Source: Ditylenchus dipsaci (lineage: Eukaryota; Nematoda; Chromadorea; Rhabditida; Anguinidae). Taken from it: a stretch of 64,000 bases of DNA. The position numbers and the translations under genes are program-made. Positions 15,668 to 64,000 of the stretch are shown piece after piece (position 1 is the stretch's first letter; every line of letters begins with the position of its first letter). The notes beneath the pieces were generated by a model. The model made no database searches. It was not told the DNA's origin and worked only from the letters and a program-made list of their open reading frames with translations. The stretch covers positions 1-64,000 of the forward strand of contig SADC01001356.1 in NCBI GenBank assembly GCA_004194705.1, given 5' to 3'.

Positions 15668-16852
15668 TTACTGGCACCAGACATTTTCCTTTCGAATGGT
15701 GTCTTTTTCTTCCTCAGTCATGTCGTCTTCCAATTGAAAAAGTTCACGAACCTGTAACAGTCAATATTTTATATTCTGTTTTATGAGTTAAGGACCCACC
15801 TCTTCTGGACTCTTGTTTTTCATGAGAGCAGCCACAGTCTGGCAACCATACAAGTAGAGAGACTTGATGTCCAAATAGTTGGCAGCCAACAGTAATTCTA
15901 CAATCTGCTCCATCGGCACATTGTAGAAGGTCTTCTCAGCATCGTTCAACTTGAACCAAATACGTTCCCGAGTGGCTGGGTCTTCTTGGATCACTGGTTC
16001 TGGCAAACCTGCAATCATTGCAACCAAATAGATGTTTTAAACGGTTGAAATCCATATAAAATCACACTCAAGTTGGTTCTCGCCTTGAGTCCGATACTTT
16101 TAACATACATTTTCTGACTTTTTTCGAGTTGGATTGAGTTTCAGAAGTTCTATTGACCAAGTTTTAGTGATTATTTTTATGGCAGTTTTTTCTCGTGCTG
16201 TTCTTTAGTTCCATTTTCTAAACTCCGTGAGCTTTCACGAGATCTATTGCTTCCAAATTTCGGATTTGGTTCAGAGCTCCTCCCCCGGGGCCACAACTTC
16301 AATTTTTCTTGAGCCCCAAAAATTTCTTAATGACTTCAATAAGATCCACTCTCCGCTGAAGGTCTATTGGAAAAGCACCCTCGGCTATTAGAAAAAATAT
16401 GGTATGTAGTTTTTTTTAAATAAAAGGCATGAATTAGTTTGCTATGCGACCGCTCCACAACTTAAAAAGAAATCAGAGGCACATTTTATTGAAAAATCTC
16501 AATTCCTATTTTTAAAAACATAACCACTTTAAACATAAACACCCTGGTTCATTTTGTGGACTGCAGCCAGCTATTTTCAAGTAAAATATAAATTGGAACA
16601 CCCACCAACATGGTCTTTGCACCATTGCAGCACTTTTTCAAACACCTTGCTGGTCACAGCTGGGATAGGAAACTCAAATTGGTCGCCCTCAGCCAAGTTC
16701 AAGTCTTCGTACATCTGAGAGAATGTCTTAGACTGACTGATCACGGCCAACTCCACCTGGAACAGCTCTCCATCCTGCGTCTTCACTGTCACCTGTCCAG
16801 GCCCATGAGCAGAAGGGGTAGAGCAAGCGGCCACTTCACGATCAGAAGACAT
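15668..16852 (-). CDS. skr: SKP1-like protein, 179 aa (SCF ubiquitin ligase adaptor)
   Basis: SKP1 proteins bridge CUL1 and F-box proteins in SCF ubiquitin ligases. Three exons join in frame: 16852-16606 (ATG start, phase 1 end), 16008-15800, and 15751-15668 (stop), giving 179 codons against about 160 in typical SKP1. The first exon has the N-terminal BTB-like fold (VTVKTQDGELFQVELAVISQ). The second has the diagnostic core (LLLAANYLDIKSLYLYGCQT and NKSPEE). The last has the F-box-binding tail (LEDDMTEEEKDTIRKENVWC). An N-terminal extension of about 15 residues is unusual. All splice sites are GT-AG and all phases agree, so the gene looks intact. Nematodes carry many skr paralogues; which one this is cannot be told here. 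Confidence 0.92.
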
Positions 16853-17340
16853 TACTTGACTATGAGGCTTCAGAGGTTACAGTAACTGAAAAAAGCTAGC
16901 GGTTGCTTAATAACTTACTTATTAAAGGACCATGAAAATTGATAAGCACAGCAATTTGCGGAATTGAAACTCGCGCGGGACCCGGTACGTGACGATTGAT
17001 CCCATCGGCCGATTGATCCCATGGGACGATTGATCCCATCCTGTCAAAAAGGGACGATTGATCCCATCCCGTCAAAAGGGGACGATTGATCCCATCCAAT
17101 AAAAAAGGGACGATTGATCCCATCCGATTAAAAAGGGACGATTGATCCCATCCAATAAAAAAGGGACGATTGATCCCATCCCGTTAAAGAAGCGATGATT
17201 GATCCCATGCCGTTTAAAAGGGACGATTGATCCCATCCCGTTAAAAAAGGACGATTGATCCCATCTAATTATAAAGGGACGATTGATCCCATCTTGCTAA
17301 AGAAGAAACGATTGATCTTATCTAGAGATGGCCTCGGTAC

Positions 17341-17639: not shown

Positions 17640-18387
17640 CGCGACCAAACAGCAAAATTCTAAATTAATCAAACATGAACAAATTATAATCAAAAGTTCA
17701 CCTTTCTGGGTCATTTCTCCCAGAATCGCCGAGCAAAAATTGTTCTTCACGACCGGTTGCATCTGTATACCGTTGGCACACTGCTGGAATGTCAATTAGC
17801 TGTACATCGTTTCCTTCGGTAACCGGAACATCATTCTTTCTTCGAATTCTACGAACTTGCTTCCGAACTGCGCTGCCAATAAGACTGGGAGCCAGAGCCA
17901 ACGGAGCTGATTGCAATTCCTAATTCAGCAACTGTTTCGGTTTCTTAATAGGTTATACAGTCTTTAACATTCTTATAAAGTCTACCTCACGAGTTTCCAC
18001 TGCTCTCCTCTTCAAACTCGCTTTAATATTACTGAGTGGAACTGCCATCGGATCCTTATTGTGATTGTGATTGAATATGGCATTGTGTGGAATAAACTTG
18101 ACAAATACATTGCCGACGACAGTTGAATGAAGACGCGCTTTGCAGCCACCATTTGCTTCTTTATATTTCTCGCATTTCCAGTGTTGCCTTGTACCATTCA
18201 TCACCTTCACGTGCTGTTGAAATAAAAATCCTTTGTGCGCTGCTTTATTTCGGCCCCTTTCAGACAATACGATTGTGAGTAAATCCTGTGAAAAATAAGA
18301 TTATCAACATTTCGCAATAGGACGTACATTTTCTTCAATTACTGCTTCTTCTTCATTATTGACGTTGGTGTTGCTGTTAGCTTGCAT
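17640..18387 (-). pseudogene. FLYWCH-type MULE transposase N-terminal remnant
   Basis: Exon 1 (18387-18328) starts with ATG and ends at a GT donor. Exon 2 (18285-17986, 100 codons) holds a FLYWCH-like zinc finger: GFLFQQH, then HWKCEKYKEANGGCKARLHS, then FNHNHNKDP. The paired Cys and His spacing fits a C2H2 FLYWCH domain that binds DNA. The next block (about 17945-17640) starts with an in-frame TAG (LLN-stop-ELQ) and continues with PLALAPSLIGSAVRKQVRR. It then loses frame. The catalytic DDE part seen in the 60.7-62.6 kb copy is absent, replaced by a GTCCCG-rich block. This copy cannot make a working transposase. Confidence 0.82.
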
Positions 18388-35230: not shown

Positions 35231-35486
35231 GTTGTGGTCAAAACTGCGTTCAAACTATTCGCAATATAAGTTGTTCCCCTCCTTTAACCCCCAACTGGCC
35301 ACACGCCTTACTTAGAAAAATCGATTATGGAACTTTTCGCAAAACGTCATATTATCGAAAATTTCAGATACGAGACCTACACAAAATCCAGCAGCACTTT
35401 TCTAAACAAGAAAACAAAAATAAATCAAAATAGACTATGGACTTCAAAACAATTTCACCTGAATATCCAAACTTATTTTAGCTATC

Positions 35487-35982
35487 ATGAGCCAGAAAGA
35501 AAGCGTTTCATCTGAGGAAAAGTGCTTTGTCATCGTCAAACCTGATGCAATTGATCGTCGCCTGCAATACTTAATTCTCTCTCGTATAGCCAATATCTCG
35601 GGCTTGAAAAACCTGGGGATTGTGTTCCACGTTGCTTCGGTCGCCAATGTTGACGTTTATCTCGTCAATCAAAGGCAACTGTCAGCTGAAGATCGTCTGC
35701 GTCTGCGCACTTGGCTGACAACGGAGTCCTCGATTCTAACTCTATGGGAAGGAAAAGATGCTTGCAAGCTTGTGGGCAACATGAAAAGGGAAATTCGAAG
35801 ACAGTACTCCCAGACAAATGCAGACGGAAGCCTGGTTGACCCGATGAAGAACTTAAAAAAATCTGACAAAGAAAATCTGGATGATTTGAATCAAGTGAAA
35901 TATCGAATTTGTTGCTGTTAATTTGTTGTTTGTCAATTTGTTGCAGGATAAAGGTCGATTTAAAATTTTAAATTTAAAATGA
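35487..35982 (+). CDS. Divergent NDPK-like protein, probably non-catalytic
   Basis: Nucleoside diphosphate kinases pass phosphate between nucleotides through a histidine. ATG at 35487 opens 136 codons to 35894. A 52-base GT-AG intron then leads to a short last exon (35947-35982); reading through instead adds only VKYRICCC. Residues 11-24 (EKCFVIVKPDAIDR) match the first strand and KPD motif of NDPK domains. TLWEGKDACK matches the WEG motif. The active-site Asn-x-x-His-Gly segment is missing, so phosphotransfer is unlikely. The product could be a regulatory NDPK-like domain. The C-terminus is charged (KNLKKSDKENLDDL). Family assignment rests on two motifs and overall length. Confidence 0.6.
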
Positions 35983-41140: not shown

Positions 41141-42583
41141 AAAAAACAAGTTCACGAGGTTCCCTTGTAAGACAATTCTGTTTCTAACCACATAAAAAAT
41201 TCAAAAATACAACTTTAAAAACATAATTGTCAACAAAACGCCAGACAAAACTTAAATAAAAGCTTTTTATATTTTTTATTACTTTGAATATATTCGTGGA
41301 TTAATTTCCCACAAAAGCAAACATTCACCAACAAAACACCTATATATGTTACGTGTTTTTAAGCTTTTTTCAAAATAAAGTCAGTTGGCAGTACCAGTGG
41401 TAGCACTCGCCAATCGCCAATTGCTACCTGTTTATTATCTATAATTGGGGGGCCCTAAACCAAAGTCTGGCTTTCAATGTTTGGTCTCTAGCTAGCGGAG
41501 AAAGAGACAACACGTGCGAGCACCATACCCACACACATATATATTTTCTTCCTGTTTTTGTGTTATAATTTGTGTATGAACGATGATAGTAATCAATTGA
41601 TTTCCCTTTTCCTATACTTAAAATTTTTTTCTTTACACTTTTTATCAATTCTAAATAGCATGTGTTCGCCAAAACTATTTTGTGTGTAAGAAAGATGGCT
41701 GGCCCACTTCCCAATAATTATTAATAAAAAAAAAACCCCCAAAAAATATCTTGGTAGCTCAGTGTTTATCAGCGCCTCAGGCTTGCCAAACTGGTAAAAA
41801 ACAGTCTGTGAGCTTTTTCATGAGTCTATAAGTCTTTTTTTTTTGGCCGAGGGGTCAAATGCTAATTTTAGGCCTTAATGTAGGCATTTGACCGCCTGAA
41901 GAAAACCAAATTTTTGTTCGAAAGTGGAAAATCGGTTATTACAGGACCTAAGTTAAGCACAGTTAACGCATATATTGATTGGTAAAGCAGTTTGATATAT
42001 ATTTGCTCCTGCTTTTTATTTATTTTTCAATAAATAAATTTTTGAACATCGAGGCTGAGCCTCTCTGCCCGGGCATTTTGGCAGCGCCATTTTTTCCCAG
42101 GCATTTTGACTGTGGAATTTGGCCCCGAAACTCGACAAAATATGCCATTTACCCCTCAGTTGCGCTTTTTTAAGGCACTTTTTAGGCCTTTAAGGGCAAC
42201 ATTCCACAGCAAGAGTGCTCCGGGCAGAGTGGCACAGTTAAAATGCCCAGGACAAAATAGAACAGCCAGAATGCAATTTAAATTATTTAGCAATTTAAAT
42301 TCTTGTCATTATTCAACTAGTTTAAGGCTCCCTAATTTGCTGATTTTTCATAATTTTGCTGATGTTGACGCATAAATGCTGGATCAAAAAATCGGCATTG
42401 TTCGAGCGATTTTGCTGATTTTTATCCCAAAATGCTGATTTTGGAAGATTTTTAGTTTGAGTTGACTAGACAGGAATTTTTTTTTGAAAATCAAGGTAAA
42501 AAAGTTCAAGACCCAGAGAGTGCAGGAGTAGCGTGGACTTGACTGTGAAATTGTTTAATTCTAACTTTATTATAATTTCAGGA
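41141..42583. other. No gene; small palindromes upstream of the lipase gene
   Basis: AT-rich sequence with a degenerate inverted pair around TGCCCGGGCATTTTGGC (42068-42260). A 5' non-coding exon or promoter of the lipase gene may lie here but cannot be identified by eye. Confidence 0.4.
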
Positions 42584-45500
42584 ATGACCATCGATTTCTC
42601 ACAGGCCAACTTGTCATTTGCCGGCTGCGGCTTTTTGTGCATATATCATGCTGGAGTGTGTGCTGCTCTAAGAGAATATGCCCCACAATTGACCAAAAAC
42701 CGTATTTACGGCGCTTCAGCCGGCTCCATAGCAGCTGCTGGACTGATCTGTAATGTTTGTATTTCGGAAGCAACAAGTGCTATTCTGCAAGTGGTCTGTG
42801 AGGTGAGCCCTTTCAATTGTTTTTTTTTATTGTTTATTATCAATCAGCAGAGAAGAATTGTTTTTTGCACGGTCTGAGAAACCTTGCTGCACAAAAACAG
42901 CTGAATAAAATGTGAAACATTTGCTGCACAATAACAGGAATTTGCAATGGTTACAGCAATATTTCGTTGGCAAGAATTCAATTTATAAATTCTCCTAAAA
43001 ATAAATTATCAAAAATTATGTTTTTTTAAACCTTTGAAAATGAGAAAAATTAATTTTTTAGGTGCGGGAAGACATTTTTAATGGATCATGCCAGTGCGTT
43101 ACATAGAAAAACCGCGGAGACTAGTGAATTTTTTTTGGATGATTTTGTTTTACCGTATTTCCTCTAATTAACCACACCCTCTCTAAAAAACCCACCCCCC
43201 AACTTTGAGAACCTATATCTCAACTCAGAGATTTTTGGGCTAAAGTATAGAATGTGTGAAACGCCCGAAATCGTCCAAAATGATGATTTTCGGGAGTTTT
43301 GACCACTAAAACGTGCTTAAAACACGTTTTCAGGTGGCGGAAGACCACTTTTGGACATAAAATTTTTTTGACCAAAAATTGACTTTTTGTCCTGGTCCCC
43401 TTTATGTGTCAAAATTGTCAAATTCAAAATGTTTTTATATATTCAAAATTTATTCGGCGTATGAAAGAAATAAAAATCCTCCCCGTGTTACTTATACAGA
43501 AGTTCGGTCAGCCCTTGTCCCGGACATGTCGACTCCCGGGCTTTCTTTTTTAAAGCAGCGTAGAGCCGTTAGGCTTTAGGCTTAGGTAATCTGGTAATAC
43601 AGGTTAGAGATATTGCTTCTTGTTTGTTTATCGGCTGCTGGGATGTGTCTTTCTTTTCCATTCAAAAAATTCTAGTTTTTTATTTGTTTACTGCACATTG
43701 CTTAGGCTTAGAATTTGACAATTTTTGACACATAAGGGGGGACCAAGACAAAAAGTGAACTTTTGGTCAAAAACTTTTTATGTCCAAAAGTGGTCTTCCG
43801 CCACCTAAAAACGTGTTTTAAGCACGTTTTAGTGGTCAAAACACCCGAAAATCATCATTTTGGACGATTTCGGCCGTTTCACACATTCTCTACTCCTACC
43901 GATTTTTGAGATTTCAAAGCTGTTTATTGCGTTGTTTTAACTTTCACAAACTCGGCTGATTTCACTTTTAAGATTTTGGTTGAGCACCTGAAAATCTCGA
44001 GATTGACCTCAAGTTTTCAGATTTTGAAGGGGTTGTAAAATAAACCCACGTGTGGGGTAATTAGAGGAAATACGGTAATCAAGTTTTGTATAAAATCGGA
44101 TGTAGACTATCTCATACAGTCAACCACTGATTTAACGTCCCGAAAATGGACTAATTTGGTCAGTTTGACTTAAATTCAGTCAAAGTGAACCCTCGAAATA
44201 GCGTCACCTTCGATTAAACGTAACTTTAGGTCCGGTCCCTGGGGTTGACGTTAAATCGAGATTGACTGCGATACTTTTCATAAAAGGCAGAAGAAGTTAA
44301 AAATATTGATGATACTGACATTAAAAGCCTGCGAGAAAGAAAAAGCTGCTGGTCACCACTTTAACCTTTTAAAACGCAGAGGGTACCACTTTAAAGGGAT
44401 GCTCGCCACCGATGGGAATATTTTGAAGGGCGATTACCAATAATTATTTTGAAATGCTACTTTGTTGAGTATCCTACGGGGAATTAGTAATCAAAAACAT
44501 CACCATTTTTTAATGTCATCGGTGGCCTAGTGAAAAGGTGGCGGCGGACTGTAAAAGTTGGGTAAACGGCCAGTTCGACCCGTTTTTGTTTTAGGCTTAG
44601 GCAAGGGTAGGCCAGCGTATGTTAGGAGGGTCTCAAAAATGATGCCCGAATTTCAAAAAAGTTAAAAAGTATGCTTGGGGACCTTCCTTGTCACAAAATG
44701 ATCATTTTAAAAATGGAGCGAACTGGCCTGTCTCCTAAAAGTTGGTCGCTGGTTTGATTCCCACTGGAGGTGTAGTTTTTCTTCGACTTTTACATAATCG
44801 CGCCAAATGAGTTCTCGTTTGAATTTCGCTGGTCCCGCCTTTCAAAATATTTCCATCGGTGAATAGCAATGCCTCTTTAAAAGGGCGTACCAGCGCGTTA
44901 CACTGCAAATTATTGCGGGGACCAGAAACTTTTCTTAAAATCGTCAGTTTTTTACTCGTTCCAACTCAAATCTGACAATTATGACCTTATCCTACTTTTA
45001 AAAAGTAGGCAGAAAACTTTCGTCGGATCAGGTAAAACGCTTATAGAAAAAACAGTTAAGAGAGAAACAAATTTCTGGTCCCCGCCTTAATTGCAGTGTA
45101 ACGCGCTGGTACGCTTCTTTAAATAGCTTTTTTAGTTACCTTGTTTATTCCGGAGCTTTTTTTAAATGTTGTGTAAGATAACGAAACAATTTTTTTACCG
45201 CTTTTTAAGGGAAAAATTCCGAAAATGTAAAAATTGCCGCATCGGTAACCTTGTCTCTAACTCTTAAAGTCTGGAGCTGAAAAAAGAAACCATTTGAAAA
45301 TCATCCTGAAGTCATCTAAAAGTGCTGATTTTGGTTTTTATTGCATTTTAAGCATAAATAAATTAGCACTTCCGGGTCTTAATCAGCCAAATCAGACCAC
45401 TTGGGACCGCCTGGCTTAGAGGCTATACCAATAATTTTGAACAGAGATTTAACTTTTTATCAGCGAAATTTTAAAATAGATAGAGTATCAAAATATTTGC

Positions 45501-59111: not shown

Positions 59112-60429
59112 TAGTTTTTGTCAGCGCTGTCGGCTCCGATAGATTGAAATATAAGCGCCCATTCTCTAATAAGCGCCGACGTTCTAATAAGCACCCATGC
59201 TAAAGAGAGGTCGAAAAATAAGCGCACATGAGCTCTTTTTGGAGGAAATACGGTATTTTGGCTTATTCGACCGATGAGGTCGCTGATTCTGAATCTGGCG
59301 CTAAAAAAGTCGAATAAGCCGCTCCCAAAAATTTTACAAAAATAGGGCCAATTTTTTAATTGACATTTGGCGGTTAAATTTCTTCGCATGCGACTACAGT
59401 CGAGTCTCGCTAATCCGGCACCCATCGGGACCTGTGCTTGGGTGCCAAATTAGCGGGGGTGCCGGATTAGCGAGGGTGCTTCTAGATGACCCCCACTTGG
59501 CGTCATTTTTGGATTATGTTAAGCTTTCATTTAGCCCAATACCTGTGAGAGAAAGAGGGAGATGTCTTCATATATTTATTGAAAAGAGATGCTTTATAGA
59601 AAGCGTAGACCGTAGATAGAAAGGTACTGAAGATTTATCAGATTGGTCAGAAAGTTCGCAACTACCCATAAACACATTTGTTTTGACCTTTTAAACAGAA
59701 CCATTTTTCAACCTTTCTTAAATTATAACGATTCGATAACAATAAATAATTCATAATCATTCAGTAACAAATTTATCATTTTAATCATCTTGTTCCATAA
59801 CTATCTACCATCGACGAGTGAAATTCGTCAAGCCGCAACATAGAAAGCAACGAAAAATTGTAGCATTCTGAACCATCCTCGGATGTCTTCAAAATTTAGA
59901 GTCTAACTGTTGTTTTTCAGTAATTTAACTGCTTTAATGCAAGTAAAAGATATTATTGTGACAGAGAAAACAAAAAGACAAAAAAATAAATCTAGACAAA
60001 AAAGTAGATAAAATTTGTCTTTTTGGATAGGAGACCAGGATGGAGTCCCTTACATACTGGGTGTTTCAAGAAATTCGCTGGTTTTGAAATGAGCATAACT
60101 ATTGAAATATACATAACTATAAAGGCGTAAGAAAAAACAATTTTCAAAGACCGTTTTCGAATTGCTGTTTTTGCCAATCGTTTTCTCTTGACGGGCATTT
60201 TGTCTAGTGTATAGTGTCGAAAACACGATTTTTGCTTGGTCACCCTTGTGGTTCTGGTCCTGGTCTATGGGTAGCCCCTGGATGGCTAAATCCCTAACCA
60301 CAGTGAGTACCAAGCAAAATTTGTGCTTTCGACATTATACACTGAACAAAATTGCCCGTCAAGAGAAATTGGTCTGTGAAAACAGAATTTTGGAAAACCG
60401 CCTATAAAAAAAGTTATGCCCATTTGTAA

Positions 60430-63023
60430 CGGTACGTGACGTAAGCCCCCATCGCCGTTCGCCCCATGGGACACTAGCCCCCATTTCGCAAAAGAGAGAC
60501 ACTAGCCCCCATTTCGCGAAAAAAGGACACTAGCCCCCATTTCATAAAAAATGAACAAGAGCCTCCACTTTTTGAATTAGAGTTAAAGCGGGAAATAAAT
60601 GTGTGCGTGCTTTACTTTCTCATCTTTCCTGTTCAGTTATCTGTTGTTGTTTTTGTAACCGCTTCTCTCGCAAAATTTCATTGTCTTGTCACAACTGCTT
60701 TGTTTATTGCACTTTTTCAGCTACGATGGAATTAAATGGAAGAGTGCTCAACGAACAAATCAATTTTGCTGCGATTGGACGAGCTTTGGGAATGGAGCCG
60801 TGGGCTTTGTTTCAATATATGCATAATCTCATTCCGGGGGGGTGCAAGAGCCTGCTGGATGGTCGCCGAAGTGCAGCCAAATCTGGAGGAGGAAAACGTT
60901 TGTTTCAATTTATTATTACACTCTTTATTGCTTTGTTTTAAGATCAGATCACCATCGTCAAATTGGTGAAAGTAGAGGACAAAGCGGTGTATCGAGGATT
61001 CATGTTCCAGAAAAAGCGCCAGAATAAAGACGGATCGAAGCAAGAATGGCATTGCAACAAGCACAAAGAGAAGAACGGATGATGCAAGGCTGGTCTCCAC
61101 ACGCTGGTCGAGGGGAATGTCTTCATGAAGTTCAAGCCGCACGACGTCAACCGCTCTCACAACCACGCCGAGGATCCGATGGCCGTTCCGCTCAGCGTCA
61201 TGAAGGCAAACATGAAAAAGATCAATGTGGACACTCGAGAGGTTAGAGATTTATTCGGGTTACCTCAGTCGGTTTTTTTTACAATCTTCTTGGCTGTTTC
61301 AGGCGCCGAAGCAACTGCTTAACAACGAACTCCAGTCGATGCATTTGGCTCTCGCTCCAAGTGTCACTGACAGCGCTGTTCGAAAGATGGTCCGCCGCCG
61401 ACGTATTCAAAATGAGATTCCGGTGGTTGAAGCTTGAGACGTGGGCAACATCGATATTCCGCTAAAATGTACAGAGATGGAGCTGGGCACGAATAACTTT
61501 TCATCTTGGGAGACTCTGGCAAAGAAGATGCTCACCGGTAGAAGCTTTGAAGAATTTCTTGTGTTTTACTTTCGTTTTTCAGAATCCTTCTTTTCAGTCG
61601 CACATCAGATGGTCGGAGGAAATAGATGTCGTTTTCGGGGATGGAACCTTTGATCCTACGCCAAAGCCTTTCACAAAAGTAATATTTCAGGTTTGCTTTG
61701 TAAAAATTGCTTATCTTTGCCGATCTACGTCATCTTAGCCGAACGAACTGCGCGTGTCAACAACGGCGGAAAATAGGGTCTTTCCGGTGCTCTACGCCCT
61801 GCTTAGGAACAAGAGCCGCCAGACTTACAAGAAGCTGTTCAGGATGATTCGAGAACTGTGGCCAGCCTTTAAACTATCTTCGTTCAATGTGGATTTCGAG
61901 CTGGCCGCCATTCAAGCGCTAAATGAGGTTTTCCCGGAGCCAGGTTGGAATTTTTTTGTGGGTTGCGTTTCATACTGTTTACTTCAGAAGTAAAGATCCC
62001 GGTTGTTAACTGCACCTCGTCAAAAATTTCAAGAAGCAAATCGCGCTGAATTGGCTGACAGTGCGCTATCGGGATACGGAATTCTCTGTGCAAGCTAGAA
62101 TGATCATCTCTCTGGCATTCGTTCCGGAACCTGAGGTAAGCAAGTGCTTCGACCGACTAATGGATCATCTGCCTGCCGAATTGGAGCCGGTACTGAATTG
62201 GTTCAAGACGTACTACATTGGTTCGTGGTCTTTTGATTTTGTTGGTCTTACATCGATTATTTTAGGAACTGTGTTCCTGATTCCTTTATGGTCATGCTAC
62301 GAGAGAACTCTTGCTGGAGAGGACCGAACGAACAACTTCGCTGAGGCTGCTAATCGTCGTCTGCAAGATGCGCTGGGCGTGGATCATCCGACTGTAGACC
62401 GTCTCCTGCAAGACTTGAAGCGGATTCAACGAACGCACGACATGCACTACGAACAGCACCTGGCAAGACAAACGGCTCCGAAGAAGCGACGGGCATACTT
62501 CGAATGCGATGCACGGATTCTGACCAAGGTTCACCGCTACAATTTTGCTAATCTCATCCCGTACCTCCGAGGGCTGGCTTACAACTTTATCATGGACCAA
62601 TAGTGTTCGAATTTTTTGTTGTTAACCTCTCATGCTCTCACATATGCTGTCTCATTTGTTGTTGCTTTTTGTTTTGTTGGAAATAAACTTATCGGTTGTT
62701 GTCGACTTTTATTAATTTGAAAATGAGAATGGGGCTAAAAGCGGTAACCAATTTTTTTTGCTTTTTCAAAAAAGTGGGGGCTAGTGTCCATTTTTCGCGA
62801 AATGGGGCTAGTGTCCTTTTCTTGCGAAACGGGGGCTAGTGTCTTTTTTTTTGCGAAATGGGGGCTCTTGTTCATTTTTTACGAAATGGGGGCTAGTGTC
62901 CTTTTTTCGCGAAATGGGGGCTAGTGTCTCTCTTCGCGGAATGGGGCTAGTGTCCCTTTTTTGCGAAATGGGGGCTAGTGTCCCATGGGGGCAAACGGCG
63001 ATGGGGGCTAACGCCCGTGTACG
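60430..63023 (+). mobile_element. MULE (B), 2.6 kb, iterated terminal repeats, exact 9-bp TSD
   Basis: CATTTGTAA flanks both ends exactly (60421-60429 and 63024-63032). The left end is CGGTACGTGACGTAAGCCCC; its first 12 bases equal those of MULE A. The arms (60430-60570 and 62770-63023) hold three to eight tandem units of GGGACACTAGCCCCCATTTCGC plus A-rich spacers. The transposase gene lies between. Its arms keep the GGGAC-N7-CCCAT frame of MULE A with a different middle. Confidence 0.92.
60726..62603 (+). pseudogene. FLYWCH-MULE transposase, nearly complete, with stops
   Basis: This is a DDE transposase of the Mutator-like group with an N-terminal FLYWCH zinc finger. Exon 1 60726-60897 (ATG); exon 2 60943-61241 with the finger (EWHCNKHKEKNG, CKAGLHT, HDVNRSHNHAEDP); exon 3 from 61303; exon 4 about 61583-61689, holding the first catalytic Asp (DVVFGDGTFDPTPK); exon 5 about 61740-61942 with DFELAAIQALNEVFP; then about 62005-62219 and 62266-62603 (the latter with TNNFAEAANRRLQD). 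Three in-frame stops occur: a TGA replacing Gly in the finger (61078-61081), a TGA near 61436, and a TAA at 62009 where a Cys-x-His motif is expected. Exon 3 to 4 also needs a frame change. Overall conservation is high, so inactivation is recent, or active relatives exist elsewhere. Confidence 0.88.
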
Positions 63024-63714
63024 CATTTGTAATGCCCATTAAAACCGGCGAATTTCTTAAAACACCATCTATATCGGTTTATTCTACCGAGCCCTGGTTT
63101 CTTTTTTAGCAAATTCAATTCATCGATGAGATTTAATTACAGAACACGAAGAAAACTACTCATTGGATAAATAATTCGGTAACGCATCGTTATGATTTTA
63201 AAAAAAGGTTTGAACAAATTGCCGAAAACCAAAGACAAATACGTTTAGGGGTGGTCGCAAACTTTCGGACAACCTGATATTTCAGACGAAATTTAACAAT
63301 CGAAAATCACATTGAACCATTAAAAAAATCTGTTAATGCACTCTGTGGTCCTTTCTTAAGCTGTTCTTTGTTGATGAAGTCTACCAATTGAGACCATTGA
63401 AACAAAATATTGATACAAATGTTGTTTAGTCAATTTATTTAATACGACTGCCGGATTACTGAGGTTAGTTAATCAGGAGTGTTCAGCGTTTGAGTGCCGG
63501 ATTAGCGAGGGTGCCGGATTACCGGAGTGCCGGATTGTCGAGGGTGAACATTAAGGGTTTTCTTCGGCGGCCAACCAAACTAAGCTCGCGGTGCCAGATT
63601 AGCGAGGGGTGCCTGATTAGCGAGACTCGACTGTATACTGAAAAATAGAAAAAAAAATTATTAAAAAAATTATTTCAATGCAGAAGTTAATTTTACAATC
63701 TTCACGTTTAATTT

Positions 63715-64000
63715 TCATTCATGTACTTTGCATCCGATGCAAGGATTAGGTCTTGCATCGCCATCATAAATATCGGGTCTCGGTTTTCCAGCCACTTTCA
63801 AGTATCCACAGCTCCTTTATCAATTCTATGAATGGCATGGTCTACTAAAGTGTAAGTGCCTGGCACCACTGTCTTGATATCGACTACAGTTGATCCTCCA
63901 GGAGGCACCAGGGTAGTTTGGATGCCCTCAGCTGGGGGACTGATCAGTCCTCCGTCCCTATACACCTTATCAAAAATGGCTCCAATTACATGAAATGCTG
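63715..64000 (-). CDS. Copper nitrite reductase (NirK/AniA)-like C-terminus, partial
   Basis: NirK reduces nitrite to nitric oxide at a type 1/type 2 copper pair in two cupredoxin domains. The minus strand, entering at the window edge, reads AFHVIGAIFDKVYRDGG, then GIQTTLVPPGGSTVVDIKTV and GTYTLVDHAIHRIDKGA. These match the second cupredoxin domain of NirK. Both type 2 copper histidine motifs are present (FHVIG and LVDHAI). The next block, GYLKVAGKPRPDIYDGD, is in another frame, so one base is missing or extra near 63801-63812. The end is ARPNPCIGCKVHE followed by a stop, which is unlike the usual bacterial end. No intron occurs in this part. The 5' part lies beyond the window. It is only 82 bases from the pogo-like element. 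Confidence 0.8.

What the first reader, a model, noticed from the sequence alone, without database searches (positions are those of the whole stretch)
63715..64000. Copper nitrite reductase-like gene in animal DNA
The last 286 bases encode a NirK/AniA-type second cupredoxin domain with both type 2 copper histidine motifs and an odd Cys-Ile-Gly-Cys tail. NirK is a bacterial denitrification enzyme; eukaryotic copies are known mainly from fungi and some protists. Here it adjoins eukaryotic transposons, so simple bacterial contamination is unlikely. Possible meanings are horizontal transfer, an old eukaryotic nirK line kept in this animal, or a related multicopper protein with a new role such as nitric oxide production.
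Basis: partly seen in the sequence, partly recalled or inferred. Interest (0 to 1): 0.8.

Follow-up and report, generated by a model that had tools for sequence, protein, structure and literature searches.

The report
Nitrite reductase gene in stem nematode
The end of this window is part of a real, intron-bearing gene of the stem nematode Ditylenchus dipsaci for a copper enzyme that, in microbes, turns nitrite into nitric oxide; relatives in three other nematodes suggest that some worms may make this signal gas without the usual animal enzyme.

Summary
63715-64000 (minus strand) is the 3' end of a NirK gene that runs on to 65661 of the same contig: four exons, three GT-AG introns, 378 residues. 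All nine copper/catalytic residues are present; the best solved relative is Neisseria AniA (8.7e-98). The organism is Ditylenchus dipsaci: a Skp1 gene on the contig is 100% identical to that species. Relatives occur in D. destructor, "Aphelenchoides avenae" and Panagrolaimus davidi. With two unnamed proteins they form one clade (100/98) inside a clade with every named eukaryote and no bacterium; grouping with bacteria or fungi is rejected. The "odd" CIGC tail is usual here (162 of 166 hits), but lies in another reading frame: a PacBio indel or a real truncation. No NO synthase was found in this incomplete assembly. Best reading: a mitochondrial nitrite-to-NO reductase of some clade IV nematodes, of eukaryotic, non-fungal origin. 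Activity, expression and targeting are inferred. The open literature searched listed no paper titled for NirK in an animal.

The parts
63798..64000 (-). 3' part of exon 4 of the NirK gene, second cupredoxin domain up to the TGA at 63800-63798; exon 4 runs to 64390 of contig C1321, exons 3, 2, 1 at 65144-64987, 65422-65224, 65661-65475 (all outside the window)
63715..63807 (-). C-terminal tail of the same family (30 residues, ...PCIGCKVHE, stop at its end) in a different reading frame from the domain
   Evidence: matched on its own to residues 389-420 of D. destructor NirK, 72% identical; tail present in 162 of 166 hits
60576..62600 (+). neighbouring transposon-like open frames, not part of the gene; resemble by eye the Pfam FLYWCH match at 17956-18300
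   Evidence: direct reading; Pfam FLYWCH 6.8e-6 for 17956-18300; the 62010-62600 frame itself gave no significant Pfam match
15701..16876 (-). Skp1-related gene on the same contig (first exons; the gene goes on below 15701), product 100% identical to a Ditylenchus dipsaci protein; fixes the organism (exons joined by hand for the search)

Best explanation
This is the 3' end of a nuclear gene of the nematode Ditylenchus dipsaci, found once in the assembly, for a two-domain copper nitrite reductase (NirK) of the eukaryotic type (that of fungi, Naegleria and green algae). SHOWN: four exons with GT-AG introns, complete type 1 and type 2 copper ligands and catalytic Asp/His, a predicted NirK fold, relatives in three other named nematodes, one supported clade for them among eukaryotic NirK. 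INFERRED: a basic N-terminal leader followed by one hydrophobic segment brings the protein to mitochondria and anchors it in the inner membrane with the head in the intermembrane space; the type 1 copper takes an electron from a respiratory carrier such as cytochrome c and passes it to the type 2 copper, which reduces nitrite to nitric oxide and water. In worms without NO synthase this would supply NO and/or an electron sink under low oxygen or desiccation. The nematode line acquired it once from a eukaryotic, protist-like source, or kept it from early eukaryotes; the tree does not decide. The frame change before the tail is more likely an assembly error than a real lesion.
For: Gene model, introns 52/79/596 bases, all GT-AG; a database protein identical to residues 22-378 exists, source not shown (P0001). 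Nine of nine functional residues and no HxH motif; eight of the nine invariant in 166 of 166 hits, the Met in 165. AniA match 8.7e-98; AlphaFold model (mean pLDDT 72.4) best matches AniA, TM 0.85 by target length. Nematode relatives at 66-73% identity, two of them on contigs of 232,900 and 214,243 bases. Clade support 100/98, and 100/98 for the clade with all named eukaryotes; bacteria and fungi rejected as partners (p 0.002, 0.015). Skp1 on the contig = D. dipsaci. Flanks share repeat families, best 80% over 340 bases. Leader: 9 K+R and 1 D+E in 50 residues before the hydrophobic segment. No NO synthase match, while HNOB gave 3 exon matches in the same genome. Fungal NirK is tied to mitochondrial electron transport (PMC4686598, passages).
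Against: In the assembly the last 30 codons are out of frame, and no second, intact copy was found. TIGR02376 gives 294.9 bits against a cut-off of 296.3 (without the tail). Transcripts, mitochondrial import and nitrite reduction are untested; three of 14 database proteins examined (P0004, P0006, P0007) do not show the basic stretch before a hydrophobic segment in their listed N-termini. 27 of the 46 rows of the eukaryotic clade are unnamed. The absence of NO synthase is weak: 537 complete, 133 fragmented and 312 missing of 982 BUSCO genes in the published assembly.
Confidence: 0.75

Rival explanations
1. The D. dipsaci copy is a recently broken pseudogene: the frame change is real and removes the conserved tail, and the enzyme is being lost in this plant parasite although relatives keep it.
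For: One copy in the assembly, and it is frameshifted; the tail is kept in 162 of 166 hits, so it probably matters.
Against: The tail after the break is intact to the family stop codon (72% identical to D. destructor), the rest is open with all nine residues kept, and the assembly is 42x PacBio RSII/Canu for which the paper mentions no short-read polishing (PMC6929663, whole text).
Confidence: 0.2
2. A contaminant (protist, fungus or bacterium from the culture) misassembled into a nematode contig.
For: Fungal, protist and bacterial NirK are the well-known kinds, and the gene is somewhat GC-richer (0.41) than its flanks (0.36-0.37).
Against: Spliceosomal introns; nematode relatives that group with it 100/98; repeat families shared by both flanks, and a 42-base piece of intron 3 with an 83% match in the right flank; D. 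dipsaci Skp1 on the contig.
Confidence: 0.02
3. Direct bacterial gene transfer into nematodes.
For: Five bacterial MAG sequences (Elusimicrobia, Omnitrophota, Planctomycetales) share the CxGC tail at 51-57% identity.
Against: The named eukaryotes are one clade to the exclusion of bacteria (100/98); nematodes held with bacteria rejected, p-AU 0.002.
Confidence: 0.03
4. Vertical inheritance: NirK was in early eukaryotes and in the animal stem, and was lost in nearly all animals but kept in some clade IV nematodes.
For: Eukaryotic NirK as an inheritance from the mitochondrial endosymbiont has been proposed (Kim et al. 2009, as cited in PMC4686598, passages). The nematode clade branches among diverse rows and not inside any named group.
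Against: In the two listings of 120 proteins no other animal is named (most rows carry no name), so very many losses would be needed; fungi, nearer kin of animals, are not the partner group (AU 0.015).
Confidence: 0.25
5. The protein is folded and active but does something else, for example copper-dependent oxygen or peroxide reduction or NO scavenging.
For: I know of no member of the nematode clade whose function has been measured (recall, not searched).
Against: Catalytic Asp and His and the type 2 site of nitrite reductases are unchanged in all six members of the clade.
Confidence: 0.1

Closest known systems
Eukaryotic NirK, clade 1g of PMC10999283 (fungi, with Naegleria and algae clustering)
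   Same: Two-domain architecture, ligands, CxGCxxH tail in most, and in most a basic leader plus hydrophobic segment; about 55-65% identity
   Different: Animal host; separate well-supported nematode clade; tail out of frame in this assembly. That this is the same clade as 1g of the paper is inferred from shared members, not from its tree file
Copper-containing nitrite reductase of Ditylenchus destructor (P0002; sources call it multicopper oxidase domain-containing protein and copper-containing nitrite reductase)
   Same: Likely orthologue, 66% identical over 347 columns
   Different: Tail in frame
AniA of Neisseria gonorrhoeae (PDB 1kbv, 5ue6)
   Same: Fold, copper ligands, 52% identity in the Foldseek alignment
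   Different: Bacterial outer-membrane protein; the Neisseria row L013 lacks the CxGC tail and lies far outside the eukaryotic clade
Elusimicrobia/Omnitrophota/Planctomycetales MAG NirK (L004-L008)
   Same: The only 5 of 80 fetched bacterial loci with a terminal CxxC
   Different: Bacterial single-frame genes outside the eukaryotic clade

Membership tests
Copper nitrite reductase (NirK) | Type 1 copper His, Cys, His, Met and type 2 copper His x3 | tested here: met
   H148, C189, H197, M202; H153, H188, H345 in P0001 numbering, aligned with 5 bacterial NirK
Copper nitrite reductase (NirK) | Catalytic Asp and His | tested here: met
   D151, H294
Copper nitrite reductase (NirK) | Two cupredoxin domains, NirK fold | tested here: met
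   Pfam Cu-oxidase_3 and Cu-oxidase_2 above cut-off; Foldseek AniA first
Copper nitrite reductase (NirK) | NCBIfam TIGR02376 above its curated cut-off | tested here: inconclusive
   Best family for 6 of 6 proteins given, but 294.9 vs 296.3 bits here (no tail); 1 of 6 passes (P0003 302.2)
Copper nitrite reductase (NirK) | Reduces nitrite to NO; trimer | not testable with these tools
   needs protein
Eukaryotic NirK (clade 1g) | Falls in the clade of the other eukaryotic NirK, apart from bacteria | tested here: met
   100/98, 46 rows: 19 named or EukProt, 27 unnamed
Eukaryotic NirK (clade 1g) | C-terminal CxxCxxH tail | tested here: inconclusive
   Encoded at 63807-63715 but out of frame with the domain
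Eukaryotic NirK (clade 1g) | Mitochondrial protein | not testable with these tools
   Leader composition fits: 9 K+R, 1 D+E, then a hydrophobic segment; not a localisation
Laccase/ceruloplasmin-type multicopper oxidase | Trinuclear copper cluster with HxH motifs | tested here: not met
   No HxH motif in P0001

The most novel reading that the evidence does not exclude
Some clade IV nematodes have an animal nitrite-to-nitric-oxide enzyme in mitochondria, taken up once from a protist-like eukaryote and kept for long. It replaces the missing NO synthase and serves survival of hypoxia or drying; the carriers named so far include worms studied for drying, cold or cryptobiosis (A. avenae, D. destructor, Panagrolaimus).
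Probability: 0.4. Interest if true: 0.85.

Novelty: new member of a known kind. Interest (0 to 1): 0.68.

Why it matters
NirK is known from prokaryotes, fungi and protists; the broad 2024 survey (PMC10999283, passages) searched bacterial, archaeal, fungal, plant and protozoan genomes and foraminiferal transcriptomes, not animals. An animal NirK would give worms without NO synthase a route to endogenous NO (C. elegans lacks the gene: PMC6066330, passages), would make a nematode step in the nitrogen cycle testable, and adds a patchy eukaryotic gene whose history (repeated loss or transfer between eukaryotes) is an open question. Conserved residues and relatives in several genera make it testable in free-living worms.

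Tried and rejected
Laccase/ceruloplasmin reading: rejected on ligands and absence of HxH. Contamination and direct bacterial transfer: rejected. Fungal partner: rejected (AU 0.015 for all six rows, 0.009 for this sequence alone). Heterolobosean partner: not rejected (p 0.12). A clade of the four named nematodes without the unnamed P0005 and P0006: not rejected (p 0.23) but not in the best tree. The order inside the nematode clade is unresolved (SH-aLRT as low as 5, 17 and 28). P0005 and P0006 are of unknown source; I suspect nematodes. The AU groups were chosen after the tree was seen. Rows used: 20 labelled and 41 unnamed of 166 proteins plus 30 of 80 bacterial loci, 46 proteins plus 10 loci. 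Rfam and tRNA scans of the window: nothing. Organism by 18S or COX1: not completed. Papers on the A. avenae and panagrolaimid genomes: no 'nitrite' in the main text (passage searches). The supplements were not read; those of PMC6889759 list transfer candidates of P. davidi and may hold this gene. Literature: titles seen were 20 of 23, 20 of 87 (25), 20 of 20 (26), 12 of 67 (33), 0 of 0 (34), 15 of 25 (58), 15 of 29 (59), 6 of 6 (93); by title none reports NirK in an animal.

Full report
OBSERVATION. The minus strand of 63715-64000 was translated in three frames. One frame holds 66 residues of a NirK second domain; it matches 35 distinct PDB sequences at E <= 0.001, the best being a copper nitrite reductase (6the, 8.1e-23), and TIGR02376 at 3.4e-16. 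The frame ends at a TGA (63800-63798). The remaining tail, GYLKVAGKPRPDIYDGDARPNPCIGCKVHE-stop, is at 63807-63715 in another frame.

THE WHOLE GENE. The window is bases 1-64000 of a 75,947-base contig (C1321) in a 226,978,389-base assembly of 1359 contigs. Reading on gives four exons: 65661-65475, 65422-65224, 65144-64987 and 64390-63798, with GT-AG introns of 52, 79 and 596 bases and a product of 378 residues. A database protein identical to the last 357 residues exists (P0001, source not shown), so a public gene prediction with the same splicing seems to exist already. With the D. destructor protein as query the genome gives 4 matches, all at this locus: exons 4, 3 and 2, and the tail separately; exon 1 was not matched. 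The gene is found once in this assembly.

ORGANISM AND INTEGRITY. A Skp1-related gene on the contig is 100% identical over the whole 169-residue query to a Ditylenchus dipsaci protein (P0167). The published D. dipsaci assembly has 227,234,012 bases in 1,394 scaffolds and 37.5% GC (PMC6929663, whole text); the held one is slightly smaller. Repeats left (1-63600) and right (65720-75947) of the gene belong to the same families (best 80% over 340 bases), and a 42-base piece of intron 3 has an 83% match in the right flank. Two nematode relatives lie on contigs of 232,900 and 214,243 bases. A contaminant or chimera is very unlikely; read coverage could not be tested.

WHAT IT IS. All nine functional residues are present: type 1 copper H148, C189, H197, M202; type 2 copper H153, H188, H345; catalytic D151 and H294 (P0001 numbering; roles from known NirK, recalled; alignment). 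Eight are invariant in all 166 proteins, the Met in 165. The protein has no HxH motif, unlike laccases. The full sequence matches AniA at 8.7e-98. A model from 17 sequences (mean pLDDT 72.4, pTM 0.72; under 50 at residues 1-57, 159-163, 307-317 and 346-357) finds AniA first in the PDB. TIGR02376 is the top family but 1.4 bits under its cut-off here; 5 of the 6 clade members scanned, this one included, fall under it.

RELATIVES AND TREE. The named nearest proteins are Ditylenchus destructor, 'Aphelenchoides avenae' (I take this to be Aphelenchus avenae; not checked) and Panagrolaimus davidi, then Naegleria and fungi. Both searches scored only the 8000 candidates sharing most words and listed 120; no other animal is named there, but most rows carry no name. 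Sources already label the D. destructor and P. davidi proteins copper-containing nitrite reductase. In a 56-row tree the four nematodes and two unnamed rows form a clade (100/98). The 46 non-locus rows form a clade (100/98) that holds every named eukaryote and no bacterium; 27 of them are unnamed. The nematode clade joins (95/85) a 16-row group of Chlamydomonas, three EukProt and 12 unnamed rows; the eight fungi are one clade elsewhere (100/100). A 91-row quick tree agrees on the nematode clade (SH-aLRT 98). AU tests: with fungi p 0.015, with bacteria 0.002, this sequence with fungi 0.009, with Heterolobosea 0.12. So the source looks eukaryotic and not fungal; vertical descent and eukaryote-to-eukaryote transfer remain open.

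THE TAIL. 162 of 166 proteins end in CxxCxxH; the four without include this one. Of 80 bacterial loci five have a terminal CxxC: the MAG sequences L004-L008 from Elusimicrobia, Omnitrophota and Planctomycetales. Against a simple story, the bacterial rows that join the eukaryotic clade first (L009 and L012, 93/91, not a starred branch) lack the tail; this part is unresolved. The tail's function is unknown; I suggest a disulfide or a docking/metal site (inference). In D. dipsaci it is intact but out of frame. The assembly is PacBio RSII/Canu at 42x, with 133 fragmented and 312 missing of 982 BUSCO genes, so an indel error is the likelier cause, but a real truncation is not excluded.

HOW IT PROBABLY WORKS. 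Before the domain lies a stretch of 50 residues with 9 K+R and 1 D+E, then a hydrophobic segment; D. destructor (12 and 2 in 54) and Fusarium solani (9 and 0 in 61) show the same order, while the listed N-termini of P. davidi, P0006 and P0007 do not (14 database proteins). In fungi the enzyme is tied to mitochondrial electron transport (PMC4686598, PMC10889981, passages). I infer an inner-membrane anchor, the head in the intermembrane space, electrons from a respiratory carrier, and nitrite reduced to NO at the type 2 copper. The D. dipsaci assembly gave no NO synthase match (exon by exon, controls that rang are bacteria), while the HNOB family gave three exon matches, one with stops inside; C. 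elegans also lacks NO synthase (PMC6066330, passages). The incompleteness of the assembly weakens this absence. A D. destructor stress transcriptome reports enrichment of 'nitrogen metabolism' in one of its comparisons (PMC7198036, passage), which does not name this gene.

NOVELTY. The broad survey PMC10999283 (passages) places eukaryotic NirK in clades 1b (foraminifera) and 1g (fungi, with protists and algae clustering) and did not search animals. Among the titles listed (one search found nothing) none reports NirK in an animal; subscription papers and preprints are not held, several lists were capped, and supplements were not read. Kim et al. 2009 and the D. destructor genome paper were not held. 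The enzyme is a known kind; the host and the nematode clade appear to be new. On checking, I mended the identity range of L004-L008, the description of the eukaryotic clade, the tail paragraph and the capped lists; the odds did not need to change.

Noticed in passing
L004-L008 (Elusimicrobia, Omnitrophota, Planctomycetales MAGs): These five bacterial NirK sequences alone among 80 share the terminal CxGC of eukaryotic NirK; alphaproteobacterial rows lie far off in the 91-row tree. This sits poorly with a protomitochondrial origin of eukaryotic NirK, though sampling was capped.
   Followed up: partly
window 63460-63640 and 59305-59449: Repeat with units like 'gtgccggattagcgag' just downstream of the NirK gene; translations near 59.3-59.4 kb look alike by eye.
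   Followed up: no
window 62770-63000: Run of 'gggggctagtgtcc'-like units between the FLYWCH-like element and the NirK gene (by eye).
   Followed up: no
L002:4717-4836 (intron 3 of NirK): Two 60-base arms, 75% complementary with no gap, inside intron 3, with short matches in the right flank: perhaps a small mobile element.
   Followed up: partly
window 15701-16876: Skp1-related genes seem multiplied in D. dipsaci: of 11 hits, six further D. dipsaci entries at 45-89% identity.
   Followed up: no
window 42500-42874 and 35463-35918: Patatin-like phospholipase exon (1.5e-9) and a weak nucleoside diphosphate kinase-like frame (below Pfam's cut-off).
   Followed up: no
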